From Hyphomonas johnsonii MHS-2 (GTDB lineage Bacteria; Pseudomonadota; Alphaproteobacteria; Caulobacterales; Hyphomonadaceae), in the NCBI RefSeq assembly GCF_000685275.1, contig NZ_ARYK01000001.1, positions 992,001 to 1,056,000 of the forward strand: 64,000 nucleotides of DNA, written 5' to 3'. Shown piece after piece: positions 5,578 through 58,611 of the stretch. How positions within the stretch are numbered: position 1 is the stretch's first letter; every line of letters starts with the position of its first letter. Under the pieces are notes generated by a model. It saw nothing but the letters and a program-made list of their open reading frames with translations, was not told the origin of the DNA and made no database searches. Made by a program: the position numbers and the translations under genes.

Positions 5578-6549
5578 ATGACAACGATCATCGACCTCAG
5601 CCCATCGGGCCGCAAGCATCGCCACCCGGAAAAGCAGGCGCGTCCGGATACTCCCCTCATGCGCAAGCCGGACTGGATCCGCGTGAAGGCGCCGACATCG
5701 GCTGGTTATGCCGAAACGCGGGAAATCGTGAAATCGAAAGGCCTGATCACCGTGTGTGAGGAGGCCGGATGCCCGAATATCGGCGAATGCTGGGAGAAGA
5801 AGCACGCGACCATGATGATTCTGGGCGACGTGTGCACACGGGCCTGCTCCTTCTGCAACGTGTCCACCGGCAAGCCGATGGCAGGAGTCGACGCCGACGA
5901 ACCCCGGCGCGTCGGTGACGCTGTCGCCGAAATGGGGCTTGAGCACGTCGTCATCACCTCCGTTGACCGCGACGACCTGGAAGACGGCGGCGCAATGCAT
6001 TTTGTTCAGGTCATCGCCGCAATCCGGGCCGCATCGCCCGGCACCACGGTCGAGATCCTGACTCCCGACTTCCTGCGCAAGGACGGCTGGGAAAACCACG
6101 TGATCGACGCCCGCCCGGACGTGTTCAACCACAATCTCGAAACCGTGCCGCGCCTCTACCACAGCATTCGTCCCGGTGCCCGCTACTTCCACTCCCTGCG
6201 CCTGCTGCAAAAGGTCAAGGATCGTGACCCCTCGCAGTTCACCAAATCCGGCCTGATGGTTGGTCTCGGCGAAACCAAGGAAGAGGTTTTGCAGGTGATG
6301 GACGACATGCGCTCGGCCGACGTCGATTTCCTGACCATCGGCCAATACCTGCAGCCCACGCGAAAGCATGCGGCGATCGACCGTTTCGTCACGCCTGAAG
6401 AGTTCAAGGCGCTGGAAGAAATCGCGCGCGCCAAGGGGTTCCTCATGGTGTCCGCCACGCCTTTGACGCGCTCCAGTTACCATGCCGGCGAAGACTTCGC
6501 CCAGATGCGTGCAGCGCGCGAAGCCAAGCTAGCGGCCCTCTCGGCTTAG
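5578..6549 (+). CDS. lipA: Lipoyl synthase (radical SAM)
   Basis: 323-residue enzyme that inserts two sulfurs into octanoyl chains on lipoyl domains, including the PDH lipoyl domains encoded at 49.2-51.9 kb. It shows the auxiliary cluster motif C60-x4-C65-x5-C71 and the radical-SAM motif C86-x3-C90-x2-C93. The ATG at 5578 (MTTIIDLSP) gives a normal N-terminus; the longer open frame to 5506 has no family resemblance. The next gene starts 1 nt after the stop, as is typical in alphaproteobacteria. Confidence 0.96.
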
Positions 6550-6550
6550 C

Positions 6551-7027
6551 ATGCCTCGCTTTTCGAAATCGATGCGCGTGCCTTACTCGCCCGCGCAGGC
6601 ATTCGATCTTGTCTCCGACATTGCCAGTTATCCGGACTTCATAAAATGGATAACGGCGATGCGGGTGTCGGGGGAGCAAGTTGACGAATCCGGCGTCCGC
6701 CACATGCGCGGCGATGCAGTTGTCGGTTTCAAGGGATTTGTAGAGCGTTTTTCGACCGCCGTGTCAGCCGACAGGGAGCAGGGTACGGTTGTCGCGTCGC
6801 TGATACAGGGGCCGTTCCGGAGGCTGAAGGCACAATGGCGCATCGAACCCCGCGCCCAGGGCGGCGCGGATATCGCGCTGGAAATAGACTATGAATTCAA
6901 GAATGTACTGATTGCCGTGCTTGCCGCGGCCAACCATGACACGGCCGTCAATCGCATCATGTCTGCTTTCCTTGATGAGGCGAAACGGCGTTACGCGGTC
7001 ACGCCTAGCGCATCTGCACCTGAATGA
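6551..7027 (+). CDS. Coq10/RatA-family START-like (SRPBCC) protein
   Basis: 158-residue protein of the polyketide-cyclase/START fold. The family opening is present (residues SKSMRVPYSPAQAFDLVSDI), as is the C-terminal helix with FLDEAKRRY. Coq10 homologues bind ubiquinone and help respiratory function; the E. coli homologue RatA has been described as a ribosome-association toxin, but the ubiquinone role is the more likely one here. It lies 1 nt behind lipA, so co-transcription is expected. The 3' end overlaps the convergent pncC gene by 23 nt. Confidence 0.88.
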   Translation: MPRFSKSMRVPYSPAQAFDLVSDIASYPDFIKWITAMRVSGEQVDESGVRHMRGDAVVGFKGFVERFSTAVSADREQGTVVASLIQGPFRRLKAQWRIEPRAQGGADIALEIDYEFKNVLIAVLAAANHDTAVNRIMSAFLDEAKRRYAVTPSASAPE

Positions 7028-7499
7028 GGCCGAGCGCAGATTCCACTGCTGCCATCCGCACTTCAGACCGGCCGATCTCGCCCACCTGGATCATTTCGTG
7101 AACCACCGCCCGGTTCTCTCTGGCACACGCGACATGAACCGTACCGACCGGCTTCATCCGCGTCCCCCCACCCGGCCCGGCAACGCCCGTGATAGCCACG
7201 GCAATGTTGGCGCGGCTGGCTTCCAGCGCCCCCTCAGCCATCATCCGCGCCACGGGCTCTGACACGGCACCATAATCGGCGAGAACGTCGCCGGCGATGC
7301 CAAGGATCTCTTCCTTCGAGCGATTGGAATAAGTCACGAACCCGCGCTCGAAGACCGTCGATGAGCCGGGAATGTCGGTGAACAGGGCGGCGAGCAGGCC
7401 GCCGGTACAACTTTCGGCCGTGCATATCCTGAGACGCGCGCGTTCGGCATCGTCAAGGATCAGCATTGCGAGATTTCGGATACGATCTGGAAACATCAT
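7005..7499 (-). CDS. pncC: Nicotinamide-nucleotide amidase (CinA C-terminal domain)
   Basis: 164-residue stand-alone CinA C-domain. The signature CTAESCTGGLLAAL near the N-terminus carries the active-site region, and AITGVAGPGGG is the second conserved block. It deamidates NMN to nicotinate mononucleotide in NAD recycling. There is no N-terminal CinA/MoaB-like domain, which is normal for alphaproteobacterial paralogues. It follows ispDF with a 6-nt gap, so the two are probably one transcript. Confidence 0.9.
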   Translation of the reverse strand: MMFPDRIRNLAMLILDDAERARLRICTAESCTGGLLAALFTDIPGSSTVFERGFVTYSNRSKEEILGIAGDVLADYGAVSEPVARMMAEGALEASRANIAVAITGVAGPGGGTRMKPVGTVHVACARENRAVVHEMIQVGEIGRSEVRMAAVESALGLIQVQMR

Positions 7500-7505
7500 T
7501 GCAGC

Positions 7506-8648
7506 CTAGCGCGGCCCGGGTTTCGGCACCAGCACCGCAATTGCTTCTGCGGCAATACCTTCACGTCGGCCAGTAAATCCCAGGCCTTCCGTTGTCGTGG
7601 CCTTCACGCTTACGGCCGTCAGCGGCAGGCTCAGCAGGGCGGCAGTCCGCGCTCGCATGGCCTCTCGGTGAGGCTTCACCTTGGGACTCTCGCAGATGAT
7701 CGTGATGTCGCAACTCGTCAGCACATACCCTTCGGCTTCTGCCAGCCTCACGGCCTCGGCAAGGAATACGGCGCTGTCAGCGTCCTTCCATCGCCCGTCC
7801 GATGGCGGGAAATGGTCGCCGATATCTCCCAGGGCAACCGCACCGAAGATCGCGTCCGTCAGGGCATGCCATCCCGCATCCGCATCCGAATGCCCTTTCA
7901 GCTGCGCAGTGTGCGCAATCTGGACACCGCAGAGGGTGACATGGTCGCCAGGCTCGAACGCATGAACGTCGAAACCCTTGCCGACACGTGGCACGGATGC
8001 CGCCGGGGTCATCAGCCGTGCAACCATTTCGAAATCCTCCGGATAGGTGATCTTGTGGAGCAGGGGGTCACCGGGAATCAGCTTGATACGGCCACCTGCC
8101 GCCTCCATCGCGGCAAGATCGTCGACCAGGTCGTCGCCCGCAGCCGCCAGCGCATCCCGGATTGCACCCAGCCTGAACGCCTGCGGGGTCTGGACCCGGA
8201 ACAGGCCATCCCGGGCCACGGTGACAGTGGTTTCGCCCTTCACCATCTTGAGCGCGTCGGGCACCGGCAGGGCTGGTGCGACACCGTCCGCGTCCGCCAG
8301 GGCTTCGAGCAGGGCCGTGATCATTGCCTGGCTGATGCCGGGCCGGGCTGCGTCGTGGATCAGGACCGGGCTAAGCGCGCCTGAATCGATGCCGGCCAGG
8401 CCGTTCCGCACCGACTGGGTCCGGCTGTCCCCGCCATCCACCCGCTTCACACCCATGCCGCCCCCATGGGGCATCACCGCTTCGTCCCCCACAACCACCA
8501 CCTGACCAATGCCGGGGTGTGTCAAAAGAGCCTCAATTGACCAGTCGATGATGCGGCGACCCAACAGGGTTTCCAGCTGCTTCGGGCTGGCGCGGCCGCT
8601 GCGTTTCCCACGCCCGCCCGCAACAATGACTGCAGTTGCCAATTCCAT
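7506..8648 (-). CDS. ispDF: Bifunctional IspD/IspF (MEP isoprenoid pathway)
   Basis: 380-residue fusion. Residues 1-215 are the IspD cytidylyltransferase ([13 protein letters not shown] nucleotide loop, LIHDAARP). Residues 222-378 are IspF (metal ligands Asp227 and His229 in GFDVHAF, and His261; [10 protein letters not shown] near the end). It converts MEP to CDP-ME and CDP-MEP to MEcPP in isoprenoid precursor synthesis. The fusion is the usual alphaproteobacterial arrangement. The ATG at 8648 (MELATAV) starts the IspD fold exactly; the open frame continuing to 9011 is not part of the protein. Confidence 0.95.
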
Positions 8649-53947: not shown

Positions 53948-55093
53948 GTGCTGCGTTACCTAGTTCCCGCCCTCACTGCAGGGCTGATCGCAGCCTGCAG
54001 CCCCGCGCCTCAGCCTGAACCGGAAACCGTCATGCCTGCGCCCGAGGCCTCGATTGTCCTGCCTGAAGCCCGCGATGGCGTCGTCACCGACCGTTTCGCG
54101 CGCATGGCACTCGAGTGCATCCATCGCGAATACCCGAACAAGATCAGTCACGTCATGAACAGTGATGCGGACGCCGCCACACCGCGCCGGTTGCATCCGG
54201 CCTTCTATGGCTGCTTCGACTGGCATTCCTCTGCGCACGGTCACTGGTTGCTCGTACGCATCGTCAATACCGATCCCGACACGCCATTCCGCGACGCCAT
54301 CATTGCTTCGCTCGGCCAGAGTTTCACGCCGGAGAACGTCGCGGGCGAGATCGCCTATTTCCAGGCAGACGACCGGGCGAGCTTCGAGCGCCCCTACGGC
54401 ACAGCCTGGTTCCTCCAGTTGATGACCGAACTGCGCCAGTCAGACCTTCCTGAAGCCGCAACATGGGCTCGCACGTTGGAACCGCTGGAAACCTTCATCG
54501 TCGGCGAAACGTCCAGCTGGCTGTCAAAACTCGCCTACCCTATCCGTATCGGCACGCATAACCAGACGGCATTCGCTTTCGGCCTGATGCTCGACTGGGC
54601 CAAAGCCAAGAACGCCGGCGCCTTCAATGCCCAACTTACGCAGACAGTCCTCGACTTCTATTCAGGCGACGTGAATTGCCCGCTGGCGTACGAGCCATCA
54701 GGCGAGGATTTCCTGTCGCCATGCCTCATGGAAGCGGACCTGATGCGGCGCGTCATGCCTGCAGACGACTTCGCCACCTGGCTCTCGGCGTTCCTGCCGC
54801 AAATTCCCGAAGACGGGTCGAGTGACTGGCTGCAACCCGGCGTCGTCCTCGACGCGACCGATGGAAAACTCGTCCATCTCGATGGTGTGAACCTGTCGCG
54901 CGCCTGGGCGCTTGAAGGCATCGCCAGCGCGCTACCTGACGGCGACCCACGCACGCCTTCGCTGCTTGCGACAGCTGCGCTCCACAAACAGACGGGCATC
55001 GCGGCTGTCAGCGATGCGCATTATGCCGGTGGTCACTGGCTCGCAAGCTTTGCGACCTATCTCGAAACGCGCCGCGGAATCGACACCGAATGA
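53948..55093 (+). CDS. DUF2891 lipoprotein
   Basis: 381 residues with GTG start at 53948 and GGAGG upstream. The N-terminus VLRYLVPALTAGLIAACSP is a lipoprotein signal. The mature part is the DUF2891 family, with the diagnostic HPAFYGCFDWHSSAHGHW and later RIGTHNQTAFAFGLMLDWA and HYAGGHWLASFATYL. The function is unknown; conserved His, Asp and Trp suggest an enzyme or binding protein of the helical toroid type. It overlaps the NRAMP-like gene by ATGA and thus heads the 5-oxoprolinase operon. Confidence 0.85.
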   Translation: MLRYLVPALTAGLIAACSPAPQPEPETVMPAPEASIVLPEARDGVVTDRFARMALECIHREYPNKISHVMNSDADAATPRRLHPAFYGCFDWHSSAHGHWLLVRIVNTDPDTPFRDAIIASLGQSFTPENVAGEIAYFQADDRASFERPYGTAWFLQLMTELRQSDLPEAATWARTLEPLETFIVGETSSWLSKLAYPIRIGTHNQTAFAFGLMLDWAKAKNAGAFNAQLTQTVLDFYSGDVNCPLAYEPSGEDFLSPCLMEADLMRRVMPADDFATWLSAFLPQIPEDGSSDWLQPGVVLDATDGKLVHLDGVNLSRAWALEGIASALPDGDPRTPSLLATAALHKQTGIAAVSDAHYAGGHWLASFATYLETRRGIDTE

Positions 55094-56298
55094 AACTGCC
55101 CATCGGCCCCGGCGCTCTCGTCGCAGCGGCTTTCATCGGGCCTGGTACGGTTACAGTCTGCACGCTGGCCGGCGCAAATTTCGGATTCGCACTTGTCTGG
55201 GCGCTGGTATTTGCGACGTTCGCCACGATCATCCTGCAGGACATGGCCGCCCGCCTTGGTGTAATGGGCCGGGTCGGACTCGGCGAAGCACTTGTTTCCG
55301 GCACGGAGAATCCCTGGCTCAAATGGGGCGCTGCCGGCCTCGTCCTGACGGCCCTTGCACTCGGCAACGCCGCATACGAAGCAGGCAACCTGTCAGGCGC
55401 GGCCCTCGGGATAGAGGCGCTCGCTGGTGAAGGCACGGTACAGCGCCGGTGGATCATCCTGCTGCTTGCCCTGATCGCGGGCACGATCTTGATCATTGGC
55501 CGCTACAAGTTGGTCGAACGTGTCCTTATCTCACTGGTCATGATCATGAGCCTCGCCTTTGCAGGCAGCGCGATCCTCGTGCGGCCGGATATCGCCAGCC
55601 TTCTCTCCGGCATCATTCCGCGTGTCCCGGAAGGCGGCCTGCTGACGGCGGTTGCGCTGATCGGCACCACGATCGTTCCCTATAACCTCTTCCTGCACGC
55701 CGCCGCTGTGCGCGAGCGCTGGCCAGTCGCCAGCGATCAGGCCCTCGGCGAAGCAACCACGGATACCCGCGTGTCGATTGGCCTTGGCGGCCTGATCTCG
55801 ATCCTGATCCTTACGACCGCAGCCGCCAGCCTGTTCGGCAGCGGCGCGCAAATCGACAGCGCAGCGGGCATGGCAGACGCCATTGCGCCGACCTACGGTG
55901 CGGCCGCCAAATATCTGGTTGCCATTGGATTCTTCGCCGCCGGGCTCACATCCTCCATCACGGCGCCGCTGGCCACGGCCTATGCGCTCAGCGAAATCGC
56001 CCGCCAGCCGCGCGGAGGTCCATTGTTCCGCGGTGTCGCGCTTGCCGTGCTGGTCATTGGCACGGGCATCGCACTGCTGGGCCTGCGCCCCGTTCAGGTC
56101 ATCCTGGTTGCGCAGGTGGCGAACGGATTGCTGCTCCCGATCGTGGCAGTGTTTCTGCTGATCGCCATGAACCGCCGCAGCCTCCTTGGTGATCACGTCA
56201 ATGGACGGGTCGCGAATGCGCTGGGCGTTCTCGTCATCCTGATCACGTTCGGGCTTGGCCTGCGCATCGTGCTGCGGGCCGTGGGGGTGTGGCCGTGA
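55090..56298 (+). CDS. NRAMP-family transporter lacking the metal-binding motifs
   Basis: 402 residues with about 11 transmembrane helices. TM1 aligns with NRAMP (GPGALVAAAFIGPGTVTV), but the metal motif DPGN reads GPGT. In TM6 the MPH motif reads VPY (GTTIVPYNLFLHA). Both sets of metal ligands are therefore gone. Bacillus subtilis has an NRAMP-like gene (ycsG) beside its pxpA-pxpBC homologues, as here. The likely cargo is an organic acid such as 5-oxoproline; that is inference. Overlaps of 4 nt join it to the genes on both sides. Confidence 0.82.
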   Translation: MKLPIGPGALVAAAFIGPGTVTVCTLAGANFGFALVWALVFATFATIILQDMAARLGVMGRVGLGEALVSGTENPWLKWGAAGLVLTALALGNAAYEAGNLSGAALGIEALAGEGTVQRRWIILLLALIAGTILIIGRYKLVERVLISLVMIMSLAFAGSAILVRPDIASLLSGIIPRVPEGGLLTAVALIGTTIVPYNLFLHAAAVRERWPVASDQALGEATTDTRVSIGLGGLISILILTTAAASLFGSGAQIDSAAGMADAIAPTYGAAAKYLVAIGFFAAGLTSSITAPLATAYALSEIARQPRGGPLFRGVALAVLVIGTGIALLGLRPVQVILVAQVANGLLLPIVAVFLLIAMNRRSLLGDHVNGRVANALGVLVILITFGLGLRIVLRAVGVWP

Positions 56299-57056
56299 CG
56301 AAAGCGATCTGCCTTAACGCTGACATTGGCGAAATGCCCGGCGAACCCGGCCGGGCGCTCGACCGCGCCATGCTCGACGTGGTCACCCGATGCAGCATCG
56401 CATCAGGCGGTCATGCAGGCGACGCGCAAAGCATGGCTGCCACGGTCAAGGCAGCAGACGCCCGCAACGTCCTGATCGGCGCCCATCCATCCTATCCTGA
56501 CCGCGAAGGCTTCGGCCGGCGTGCAATGGCCATGGACGCCGACGCCTTGCGCGACAGCTTGCTCGAGCAGGTTCGTGCGCTCGCATCCATCGCCCGCGAG
56601 CGTGGTCAGGCCCTGTCGCACCTCAAACCTCACGGCGCACTCTACAACACCGCAGCCCGCGACGCCGGGATTGCGCGTGTCGTGGTGGAGGCCACGCTAC
56701 GGTCCCGCATAGACTTGTTGATCGGCCCGCCACATTCGAAACTTGCAGCTGCCGCCGCTGACAGCGGACTCCCGTTTCTGGCCGAAGGCTTCGCCGACCG
56801 GACGTACGAGGCGTCTGGAGACCTCACCCCGCGTACTGAGCCGGGCGCCGTTATCGAAACCGACGCGGACCGGATCCGCCAGGCCCTGCAGATCGTCGAG
56901 ACCGGCACTGTCACCACTCGCACCGGAGAAACACTCCAGCTGCCCGTCCGCACGATCTGCGTGCATGGTGACACGCCCGGAGCCCTCGCCAGCGCCCGCC
57001 ATATCCGTTCGGCTCTGGAATCGTCCGGAATTGTTGTCGCGCCCGTCGAGCCATGA
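56295..57056 (+). CDS. pxpA: 5-oxoprolinase subunit A (LamB/YcsF family)
   Basis: 253 residues. Family blocks: LNADIGEMPG, SGGHAGD, IGAHPSYPDREGFGRR, LKPHGALYN, FADRTYEASGDLTPR and TICVHGDTPGA. With PxpB and PxpC it opens 5-oxoproline (pyroglutamate) to glutamate using ATP. The GTG at 56295 is preferred since it makes the usual GTGA overlap with the upstream stop; a GTG at 56289 is possible. Confidence 0.93.
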   Translation: MTKAICLNADIGEMPGEPGRALDRAMLDVVTRCSIASGGHAGDAQSMAATVKAADARNVLIGAHPSYPDREGFGRRAMAMDADALRDSLLEQVRALASIARERGQALSHLKPHGALYNTAARDAGIARVVVEATLRSRIDLLIGPPHSKLAAAAADSGLPFLAEGFADRTYEASGDLTPRTEPGAVIETDADRIRQALQIVETGTVTTRTGETLQLPVRTICVHGDTPGALASARHIRSALESSGIVVAPVEP

Positions 57057-57688
57057 ACGAGCCAGATATTCTGTTCAGCGGTGACGATGCGCTCCGGGTC
57101 CTGCTCAGCGACCGGGCAACGCGGATCGCGCGGGCAAGCCAGCTCCGCCAGTCGGGTGACTGGCTTGAAGTCGTGCCGGGTCGCCAGGACGTGACGGTGC
57201 AGTTCGATCCCATCCGTCTCACGCCTGCCGAGGCCATGGCGCACCTCCGCCTCACCCTTGCCACACCCCCACCACCCACGCGCCACGCCACACGGACGAT
57301 CGACATTCCCGTCCGTTTCGGCGGTTCTGACGGCCCGGATCTCGCAATGATCGCAGAGAGTCTGGGCGTGACCGAGCCCGATATTGTCTCGCAATTGCTG
57401 GCCCAGCCGCTGCGGGTCGACATGCTGGGGTTCACGCCGGGATTCGCTTACATGACAGGCCTTGAAGAGCATTATGTGATTCCGCGCCTTCTGCAGCCAC
57501 GGCAACAGGTTCCAGCAGGGTCCATTGGACTTATAACCGGCCAGTGCGGCCTTTATGCGCTCGCAGGGCCGGGTGGATGGCCCATCATCGGTCGCGCGCT
57601 TGCCAGCCTGTTTGATCCTGCCTCCGCTGATCCCTTCATCCTGCAGCCGGGCCTGCAGGTTCGGCTTGTGGACAGCAGCAAGGCATGA
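57053..57688 (+). CDS. pxpB: 5-oxoprolinase subunit B (KipI family)
   Basis: 211 residues of the allophanate-hydrolase subunit 1 fold. Diagnostic C-terminal region: LGFTPGFAYMTGLEE, PRLLQPRQQVPAGSIGLITGQ and YALAGPGGWPIIGR. N-terminal half shows the usual LVEF-type strand DVTVQFDP. It acts with PxpC. Overlaps pxpA and pxpC by 4 nt on each side. Confidence 0.94.
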   Translation: MNEPDILFSGDDALRVLLSDRATRIARASQLRQSGDWLEVVPGRQDVTVQFDPIRLTPAEAMAHLRLTLATPPPPTRHATRTIDIPVRFGGSDGPDLAMIAESLGVTEPDIVSQLLAQPLRVDMLGFTPGFAYMTGLEEHYVIPRLLQPRQQVPAGSIGLITGQCGLYALAGPGGWPIIGRALASLFDPASADPFILQPGLQVRLVDSSKA

Positions 57689-58611
57689 GCCTCACGATCC
57701 TCCAGCCCGGCGCCCAGATGACCCTGCAAGGCGCCCCCCGGATCGGCACCCGCCACCTCGGCGTCCCGGCGAGCGGCCCGGCTGACCCACTGTCCATGGC
57801 GCTGGCCAACCACCTGGTCGGAAATGCCTGCGACGCTACCTGTATAGAGATCACGTTCGGGAACGCAGCTATCCGGTTCAACACCGCAGCCAGTTTCGCG
57901 CTGACCGGCGCGCCCGCTGCAGCAGCGCTTGCAGGTCGCGCCATCGCACCTCACACCGCTCATACTGCGCAAGCGGGAAACGAACTCAGGATAGACGGCG
58001 TGGGGCAGGGGTGCCGAATATACCTATCCATCGCCGGAACGTTGGCTACCAACGCCTTTCTGGGCTCGACGTCTACATACCTGCCGGCCCGTCTCGGTGG
58101 CCACGAAGGCCGCGCATTGAAACCTGGAGACCAGATCGCCATTGCAGCGCCGCGCAGCGCACCAACCATTGAAACACCTGCCGAATTTCGTCCGATCTGC
58201 AGTAATAGTTACGCATTGCGTGCGGTTGAGGGGCCGGATTATGTCGCCAGCCAGTCTGGCATATGGGATGAAACGTTCACCGCCACGCAACGCGCGAGCC
58301 GCATGGGGCTGGAGCTTGAAGGCCGCTTTCCGGATCCTGCGAGCGCGTCCGACATCCCGAGTTCCGCCGTCTTTCCGGGGGCGTTGCAGTTGCCGCCCGG
58401 CGGACACGGCTTCCTGCTGCTGGCCGACGGTCAGACAACAGGCGGCTATCCGCACATCCTCCAGGTCGTCCGCGCTGACCGCCACATCCTCGGACAGATC
58501 AGGCCGGGTGATCGTATCCGTTTTCTCCAGCGCACACACGCGCAGGCGACCGAAGCGCTCCGCGCCAAACAGGCACTGCTGGCAGGCTGGCTACCGGAAT
58601 TCAGCCTTTAA
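57685..58611 (+). CDS. pxpC: 5-oxoprolinase subunit C (KipA family)
   Basis: 308 residues of the allophanate-hydrolase subunit 2 fold, with TRHLGVPASGPADPLSMALAN near the start, EGPDY in the middle and LPPGGHGFLLLADGQTTGGYPHI near the end. Last gene of the operon. No U-tract terminator was seen after it. Confidence 0.94.
   Translation: MSLTILQPGAQMTLQGAPRIGTRHLGVPASGPADPLSMALANHLVGNACDATCIEITFGNAAIRFNTAASFALTGAPAAAALAGRAIAPHTAHTAQAGNELRIDGVGQGCRIYLSIAGTLATNAFLGSTSTYLPARLGGHEGRALKPGDQIAIAAPRSAPTIETPAEFRPICSNSYALRAVEGPDYVASQSGIWDETFTATQRASRMGLELEGRFPDPASASDIPSSAVFPGALQLPPGGHGFLLLADGQTTGGYPHILQVVRADRHILGQIRPGDRIRFLQRTHAQATEALRAKQALLAGWLPEFSL

What the first reader, a model, noticed from the sequence alone, without database searches (positions are those of the whole stretch)
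53948..58611. Five-gene overlapping operon: DUF2891 lipoprotein, motif-less NRAMP transporter and PxpABC 5-oxoprolinase
All four junctions are 4-nt overlaps (ATGA, GTGA, ATGA, ATGA), so the five proteins are made in a fixed ratio. PxpABC is known to convert 5-oxoproline to glutamate. The two leading genes have no assigned role. An envelope lipoprotein plus a membrane transporter in front of a cytosolic hydrolase suggests a capture-import-hydrolysis route for pyroglutamate or pyroglutamyl peptides. I know of no described system with DUF2891 in this role; the assignment is inference.
Basis: partly seen in the sequence, partly recalled or inferred. Interest (0 to 1): 0.72.

Follow-up and report, generated by a model that had tools for sequence, protein, structure and literature searches.

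The report
Recurring enzyme-like partner of pyroglutamate scavenging
The five-gene operon is real and is a known kind of pyroglutamate (5-oxoproline) uptake-and-recycling system, with one extra protein of unknown function (DUF2891) that turns up beside several unrelated versions of that system and looks more like an enzyme than a capture protein.

Summary
The operon exists as described. Its NRAMP+pxpABC core is not new: C. glutamicum pxpTABC takes up and opens 5-oxoproline (PMC13274462), and C. jejuni lacking DUF969-DUF979-DUF2891 could not use 5-oxoproline in a preliminary test (PMC12795558). The exact five-gene order was seen almost only in Hyphomonas-like loci, but the wider link holds: DUF2891 lies with all four pairings of two transporters (PxpT-type NRAMP, DUF969/979) and two unrelated oxoprolinases (PxpABC, OPLAH). 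An oxoprolinase is in 40 of 42 genomes with DUF2891, 202 of 335 without. The capture-lipoprotein idea is weak: all 19 DUF969/979-linked proteins lack an export signal, while exported forms go with the PxpT-type NRAMP (11 of 13 exported-form, 0 of 26 cytosolic-form genomes). Both forms keep the same conserved residues in an (alpha/alpha)6 fold. I think DUF2891 is a feeder enzyme that makes, or stereo-corrects, 5-oxoproline: before import with PxpT, after import with DUF969/979. Substrate unknown. Caveats: most DUF2891 genes stand alone, and the two forms are separated by one branch of the tree.

The parts
53948..55093 (+). DUF2891 lipoprotein, (alpha/alpha)6 fold; proposed feeder enzyme for 5-oxoproline
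55090..56298 (+). NRAMP-fold transporter of the PxpT type (IGPGT / GTTIVPYNLFL), probable 5-oxoproline importer
   Evidence: PF01566 E 1.5e-76; motif changes; C. glutamicum pxpTABC in PMC13274462
56295..57056 (+). pxpA (LamB/YcsF), 5-oxoprolinase subunit; alternative GTG start at 56289
   Evidence: PF03746 E 9.9e-82; NCBIfam NF003814 268.3 bits, cut-off 226
57053..57688 (+). pxpB (CT_C_D), 5-oxoprolinase subunit
   Evidence: PF02682 E 4.2e-49; TIGR00370 129.7 bits, under its 145.55 cut-off
57685..58611 (+). pxpC (CT_A_B), 5-oxoprolinase subunit
   Evidence: PF02626 E 1.1e-74; NF045499 213 bits, under its 500 cut-off
55090..55093 (+). ATGA overlap DUF2891/NRAMP
   Evidence: NTGA in 12 of 12 loci
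56295..56298 (+). GTGA overlap NRAMP/pxpA
   Evidence: NTGA in 11 of 11 loci
57053..57056 (+). ATGA overlap pxpA/pxpB
   Evidence: in-frame ATGA in 6 of 10 loci
57685..57688 (+). ATGA overlap pxpB/pxpC
   Evidence: in-frame ATGA or GTGA in 6 of 10 loci

Best explanation
The operon is a 5-oxoproline (pyroglutamate) scavenging module. Two steps are known from relatives: an NRAMP-fold protein (PxpT type) takes up 5-oxoproline, and PxpABC opens it to glutamate with ATP. The new step is inferred: DUF2891 is an (alpha/alpha)6 enzyme that supplies usable L-5-oxoproline from a related compound (a pyroglutamyl conjugate, or the D isomer). Here it is anchored as a lipoprotein, so it would act before import. 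In organisms that use the unrelated DUF969/DUF979 transporter the same enzyme is cytosolic and would act after import. Shown: gene order, motifs, co-occurrence, compartment pattern, fold. Inferred: catalysis, substrate, direction.
For: All four transporter/oxoprolinase pairings beside DUF2891: NRAMP+PxpABC (W, L002, L003, L004, L005, L010, L016, L019, L068, L131), NRAMP+OPLAH (L067, L070), DUF969/979+OPLAH (L121, L122, L124, L125, L127; L128 with OPLAH on the other strand), DUF969/979+PxpABC (L117 only). Oxoprolinase in 40 of 42 genomes with DUF2891 versus 202 of 335 without; DUF979 in 22 of 42 versus 23 of 335. PxpT-type NRAMP in 11 of 13 exported-form and 0 of 26 cytosolic-form genomes, in 9 of those 11 away from the DUF2891 gene; DUF979 in 0 of 13 and 22 of 26. 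In a second set of 50 genomes with exported DUF2891, 27 have that NRAMP (20 of those 27 with an oxoprolinase gene within about 1.5 kb) and 0 have DUF979 over cut-off. Same near-invariant His/Glu/Asp/Arg residues in both forms. Fold closest to CJ0554, then GH88 hydrolases and AGE/YihS isomerases. A cj0552-4 mutant of C. jejuni did not use 5-oxoproline.
Confidence: 0.45

Rival explanations
1. Capture protein: DUF2891 binds 5-oxoproline or pyroglutamyl peptides in the envelope and hands them to the transporter.
For: Lipobox by pattern in 11 of 14 NRAMP-linked DUF2891 proteins, a hydrophobic N-terminal segment in the other 3. The fold class includes at least one binding protein, transcobalamin (rank 26, E 0.23).
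Against: All 19 DUF969/979-linked members have no export signal yet the cytosolic form keeps the same conserved residues; the nearest other folds are hydrolases and isomerases. That NRAMP-type carriers do not use binding proteins is recalled, not tested.
Confidence: 0.12
2. Racemase sub-case of the feeder idea: DUF2891 interconverts D- and L-5-oxoproline so that the D isomer (for instance from D-glutamate) can be used.
For: Would work in either compartment and with any oxoprolinase; fold neighbours include epimerases and isomerases.
Against: Those neighbours act on sugars and share 4-11 % identity; nothing here bears on stereochemistry; one divergent relative carries RTX repeats and a sub-threshold PPC match, which fits a secreted polymer- or peptide-acting enzyme better.
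Confidence: 0.17
3. Bystander: DUF2891 has an unrelated general function and shares operons with 5-oxoproline genes in only some lineages.
For: 88 of 122 loci have no such neighbour and their neighbours vary; G231 and G324 have neither oxoprolinase nor transporter; pxpA alone is not enriched; 23 of 50 exported-form genomes have neither transporter.
Against: Linkage to four different module types; oxoprolinase of either kind in 40 of 42 genomes; exported DUF2891 goes with the PxpT-type NRAMP even when unlinked.
Confidence: 0.2
4. The NRAMP gene supplies a metal (such as Mn2+) rather than 5-oxoproline.
For: B. subtilis YcsG/MntG raises cell Mn2+ and its ycsG phenotype on 5-oxoproline may be polar (PMC10448178, passages). 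The second-best solved structure, 7qia, also lacks DPGN and MPH and is still labelled a divalent metal cation transporter, so loss of the motifs does not exclude metal transport.
Against: The same signature is linked to the unrelated OPLAH oxoprolinase; C. glutamicum needs pxpT for growth on 5-oxoproline, with complementation (the authors do not exclude metal transport).
Confidence: 0.1

Closest known systems
pxpTABC of Corynebacterium glutamicum (PMC13274462; abstract and discussion read)
   Same: NRAMP-family transporter plus PxpABC in one operon for 5-oxoproline as carbon and nitrogen source
   Different: No DUF2891 in the parts read; has its own repressor PxpR; transporter 436 aa against 402 here
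cj0552-cj0554 of Campylobacter jejuni (PMC12795558; passages), with CJ0554 structures 8ieu/8iev
   Same: DUF2891 beside a proposed 5-oxoproline transporter; the mutant lost 5-oxoproline use; same fold
   Different: Transporter is DUF969/DUF979; the solved chain starts close to the domain, so it appears to lack an export signal (inferred); DUF2891 was not tested alone
Pontixanthobacter clusters 113, 115-117 (PMC10040529; one passage)
   Same: Hydantoinase B/oxoprolinase, DUF969, DUF979 and DUF2891 clusters with neighbouring numbers
   Different: Listed there only as co-occurring with halotolerance; adjacency of the genes not shown in the passage
GH88 unsaturated glucuronyl hydrolases and AGE/YihS epimerases
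   Different: 4-11 % identity, sugar substrates; catalytic residues not compared

Membership tests
PxpABC 5-oxoprolinase | LamB_YcsF, CT_C_D and CT_A_B domains in three adjacent genes | tested here: met
   Pfam over cut-off for all three
PxpABC 5-oxoprolinase | NCBIfam curated cut-offs for PxpB and PxpC | tested here: not met
   TIGR00370 129.7 of 145.55 bits; NF045499 213 of 500; TIGR00724 226.2 of 230.2. PxpA subfamily model NF003814 is met, 268.3 against 226. I therefore call these genes PxpABC-like by domain and order
PxpABC 5-oxoprolinase | ATP-dependent 5-oxoprolinase activity | not testable with these tools
   needs an assay
NRAMP fold family | Pfam Nramp domain over cut-off | tested here: met
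   258.3 bits, cut-off 29.8
NRAMP divalent metal transporters of the MntH kind | DPGN in TM1 and MPH in TM6 | tested here: not met
   IGPGT and VPYN in the window protein, against DPGN and MPH in 10ky and 8e6l and in L183-L191. 7qia lacks them too and is named a metal transporter
PxpT-type 5-oxoproline transporter | gene link to an oxoprolinase | tested here: met
   window; in 20 of 27 genomes of the second set, 7 of 27 without one in the stretch seen
PxpT-type 5-oxoproline transporter | 5-oxoproline transport | not testable with these tools
   needs an uptake assay
DUF2891 (PF11199) | family profile over cut-off and same fold as CJ0554 | tested here: met
AGE/YihS epimerases or GH88 hydrolases | shared (alpha/alpha)6 barrel | tested here: met
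AGE/YihS epimerases or GH88 hydrolases | their catalytic residues | not tested
   no coordinates were available for a residue-level comparison

The most novel reading that the evidence does not exclude
DUF2891 is an uncharacterised enzyme class that makes 5-oxoproline available from a conjugate or its D isomer, and evolution placed the same enzyme outside or inside the inner membrane according to which of two unrelated importers the cell uses.
Probability: 0.4. Interest if true: 0.68.

Novelty: new variant of a known kind. Interest (0 to 1): 0.5.

Why it matters
5-oxoproline forms spontaneously from glutamine and glutamate, and how bacteria obtain it beyond simple uptake is little studied. A family with a solved structure and no known function would get a concrete pathway, a short substrate list and a simple growth test. 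The compartment rule, if it survives wider sampling, would also hint at what each transporter can carry. The linkage of the divergent NRAMP type to two unrelated oxoprolinases bears on the dispute over whether these NRAMPs carry 5-oxoproline or Mn2+.

Tried and rejected
Literature: 'DUF2891' gave 3 papers (one or a few passages of each seen), 'PF11199' 1 (listing only), '8IEU' none, 'cj0554' 2 (listing only), DUF969 with DUF979 5 (listing), 5-oxoproline or DUF969 from 2022 on 666 with 15 listed, a CJ0554/crystal-structure search 20 with 10 listed and none on it, PxpT/PxpG 78 with 20 listed. No paper describing 8ieu/8iev was found in these, so their ligands are unknown to me. Niehaus 2017 (PMC5625064) is not held; I know it only through citing papers.

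Looked for a third transporter in the 23 exported-form genomes without the PxpT type: 12 have a single-chain OPLAH (ORF of 1000 aa or more; in G383 the match holds a stop), but the 12 stretches around it share no transporter; one, L233, has an SSF symporter beside it. pxpA was not searched in the 50 genomes of the second set. Neighbours of lone DUF2891 genes show no common partner. Searches used a simple ORF picker, not a gene finder. Promoter and terminator scans gave counts near those of shuffles.

Limits of the counts. Export signals were judged by hydropathy, a lipobox pattern and eye, not by a trained predictor; L138 (G217) is ambiguous and was counted cytosolic. G155, G046 and G117 (very divergent or truncated DUF2891) were set aside, so the compartment count uses 39 of 42 genomes. 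Fisher tests are not corrected for relatedness. The tree is a quick one (LG+G4, no bootstrap) with long branches for L137 and L144. The frequency of PxpT-type NRAMP in genomes without DUF2891 was not measured; G342 has NRAMP-pxpABC and is not among the DUF2891 genomes. The order 'pxpA before NRAMP' for L003 and 'DUF2891 before DUF979' for L122 and L124 comes from over-long ORFs.

Full report
Observation. From GTG 53948 the DUF2891 protein begins with a lipoprotein signal (LIAAC); the frame itself is open further upstream. Pfam assigns all five without doubt; the NCBIfam cut-offs for PxpB and PxpC are missed. The NRAMP protein lacks the MntH metal motifs: IGPGT for DPGN and VPYN for MPH. The first two overlaps recur in 12 of 12 and 11 of 11 related operons, the last two in 6 of 10 each, so this is a real unit; overlaps do not prove a fixed ratio.

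What is in print. PMC13274462 (abstract and discussion read): C. glutamicum pxpT, an NRAMP-family gene, and pxpABC are both needed for growth on 5-oxoproline; it cites that deletion of B. subtilis ycsG prevents its use as nitrogen source. PMC10448178 (passages) argues that YcsG imports Mn2+ and that the ycsG effect may be polar. PMC12795558 (passages): C. jejuni cj0552-4 encodes DUF969, DUF979 and DUF2891, and in a preliminary experiment the mutant could not use 5-oxoproline; the authors credit DUF969/979. PMC10040529 (one passage) lists oxoprolinase, DUF969, DUF979 and DUF2891 as clusters 113 and 115-117. So the pathway is known; a separate role for DUF2891 is not described in anything I found.

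Where DUF2891 occurs. Neighbourhoods within 7 kb: DUF2891-NRAMP-pxpABC in 9, plus L003 with the same set; L006 and L012 with part of it, both on short contigs; DUF2891-OPLAH-NRAMP in L067 and L070 (Thermoanaerobaculales); DUF969/979 beside DUF2891 in 19, of which six also have OPLAH (in L128 on the other strand) and one, L117, has pxpBCA; OPLAH-DUF2891 in L136; alone in 88. So all four transporter-oxoprolinase pairings are seen, one of them once. OPLAH, DUF969 and DUF979 identities were checked with Pfam on one locus, L121.

Genome level. In the 377-genome draw, DUF2891 is in 42, DUF979 over cut-off in 45, pxpA in 171, a single-chain OPLAH in 89 (E at most 1e-180 in an ORF of 1000 aa or more, counted). 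Either oxoprolinase is in 40 of 42 genomes with DUF2891 and in 202 of 335 without (Fisher p 1.5e-6); DUF979 in 22 of 42 and 23 of 335 (p 2.5e-12); OPLAH in 21 of 42 and 68 of 335; pxpA alone shows no enrichment, 23 of 42 and 148 of 335. The two exceptions are G231 and G324, which also lack both transporters. In G268 DUF2891 sits with a second DUF979 copy, apart from the copy beside pxpA.

Compartment. None of the 19 DUF969/979-linked DUF2891 proteins has an export signal; of the 14 NRAMP-linked ones 11 show a lipobox by pattern and 3 a hydrophobic N-terminal segment. At genome level, after setting aside three odd proteins, 11 of 13 exported-form genomes and 0 of 26 cytosolic-form genomes have the PxpT-type NRAMP; DUF979 is in 0 of 13 and 22 of 26 (p 4.7e-8 and 2.9e-7). 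In 9 of those 11 genomes the DUF2891 gene is not beside the NRAMP gene. In family f8 both forms occur: two exported with the PxpT type, three cytosolic with DUF979, one cytosolic with neither. A second set of 50 exported-form genomes (50 of the 80 loci; at least two genomes shared with the first set) gave the PxpT-type NRAMP in 27, all with the GTTxVPYNLFL signature, and DUF979 over cut-off in 0; pxpA (15) or OPLAH (5) lies near that NRAMP in 20 of 27. Against this, 23 of 50 have neither transporter, and the tree puts the two forms on two sides of one branch (SH-aLRT 87), so the pattern may be one historical split.

Transporter. The PxpT-type signature is shared by NRAMPs beside PxpABC and beside the unrelated OPLAH oxoprolinase, which speaks for 5-oxoproline as cargo. 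Loss of the metal motifs alone does not: 7qia, the second-best solved match, also lacks them and is named a divalent metal transporter.

Reading. A protein that keeps the same residues inside and outside the membrane, has a fold best known from enzymes, and goes with any pairing of importer and oxoprolinase is unlikely to be a capture protein. The simplest reading is an enzyme that feeds the pathway, placed before PxpT and after DUF969/979. Whether it cleaves pyroglutamyl conjugates, racemises 5-oxoproline or does something else is open. The bystander reading remains possible because most DUF2891 genes stand alone.

Noticed in passing
L067, L070, L167 (G255), L168 (G269), L198, L205, L218, L220, L221: The PxpT-type NRAMP lies beside the unrelated OPLAH-type oxoprolinase in several genomes (in L205 on opposite strands; L218 and L221 are the genomes of L070 and L067), in G255 and G269 with 4-nt overlaps.
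   Followed up: yes
L137:6811-9882: Very divergent DUF2891 domain fused to RTX calcium-binding repeats (13 stretches) with a PPC match under its cut-off, so possibly secreted.
   Followed up: partly
L153 and L156 (Klebsiella plasmids), L155 (Burkholderia): 55 plasmid records match DUF2891, 35 of them Klebsiella. Of the four looked at, L156 and L155 carry DUF969 and DUF979 beside it, L154 does not, and in L153 they appear as split ORFs. L156 also has acetamidase, APC permease and urea amidolyase-family genes nearby.
   Followed up: partly
L163 (G187): A genome of the window's own genus has pxpABC but no NRAMP match (E up to 1e-20) and no DUF2891.
   Followed up: partly
L003, L006: Contigs binned as Acidobacteria carry the operon or its start, with DUF2891 74 and 71 % identical to the window's; misbinning or recent transfer, not resolved.
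   Followed up: no
L150 (G274), 5731-8064: A cytosolic-form DUF2891 lies beside what looks by eye like an M20-type amidohydrolase and a peptide-type ABC transporter (no family search).
   Followed up: no
L143 (G046): The DUF2891 match covers only about the first 157 of 325 profile positions; probably a broken gene.
   Followed up: no
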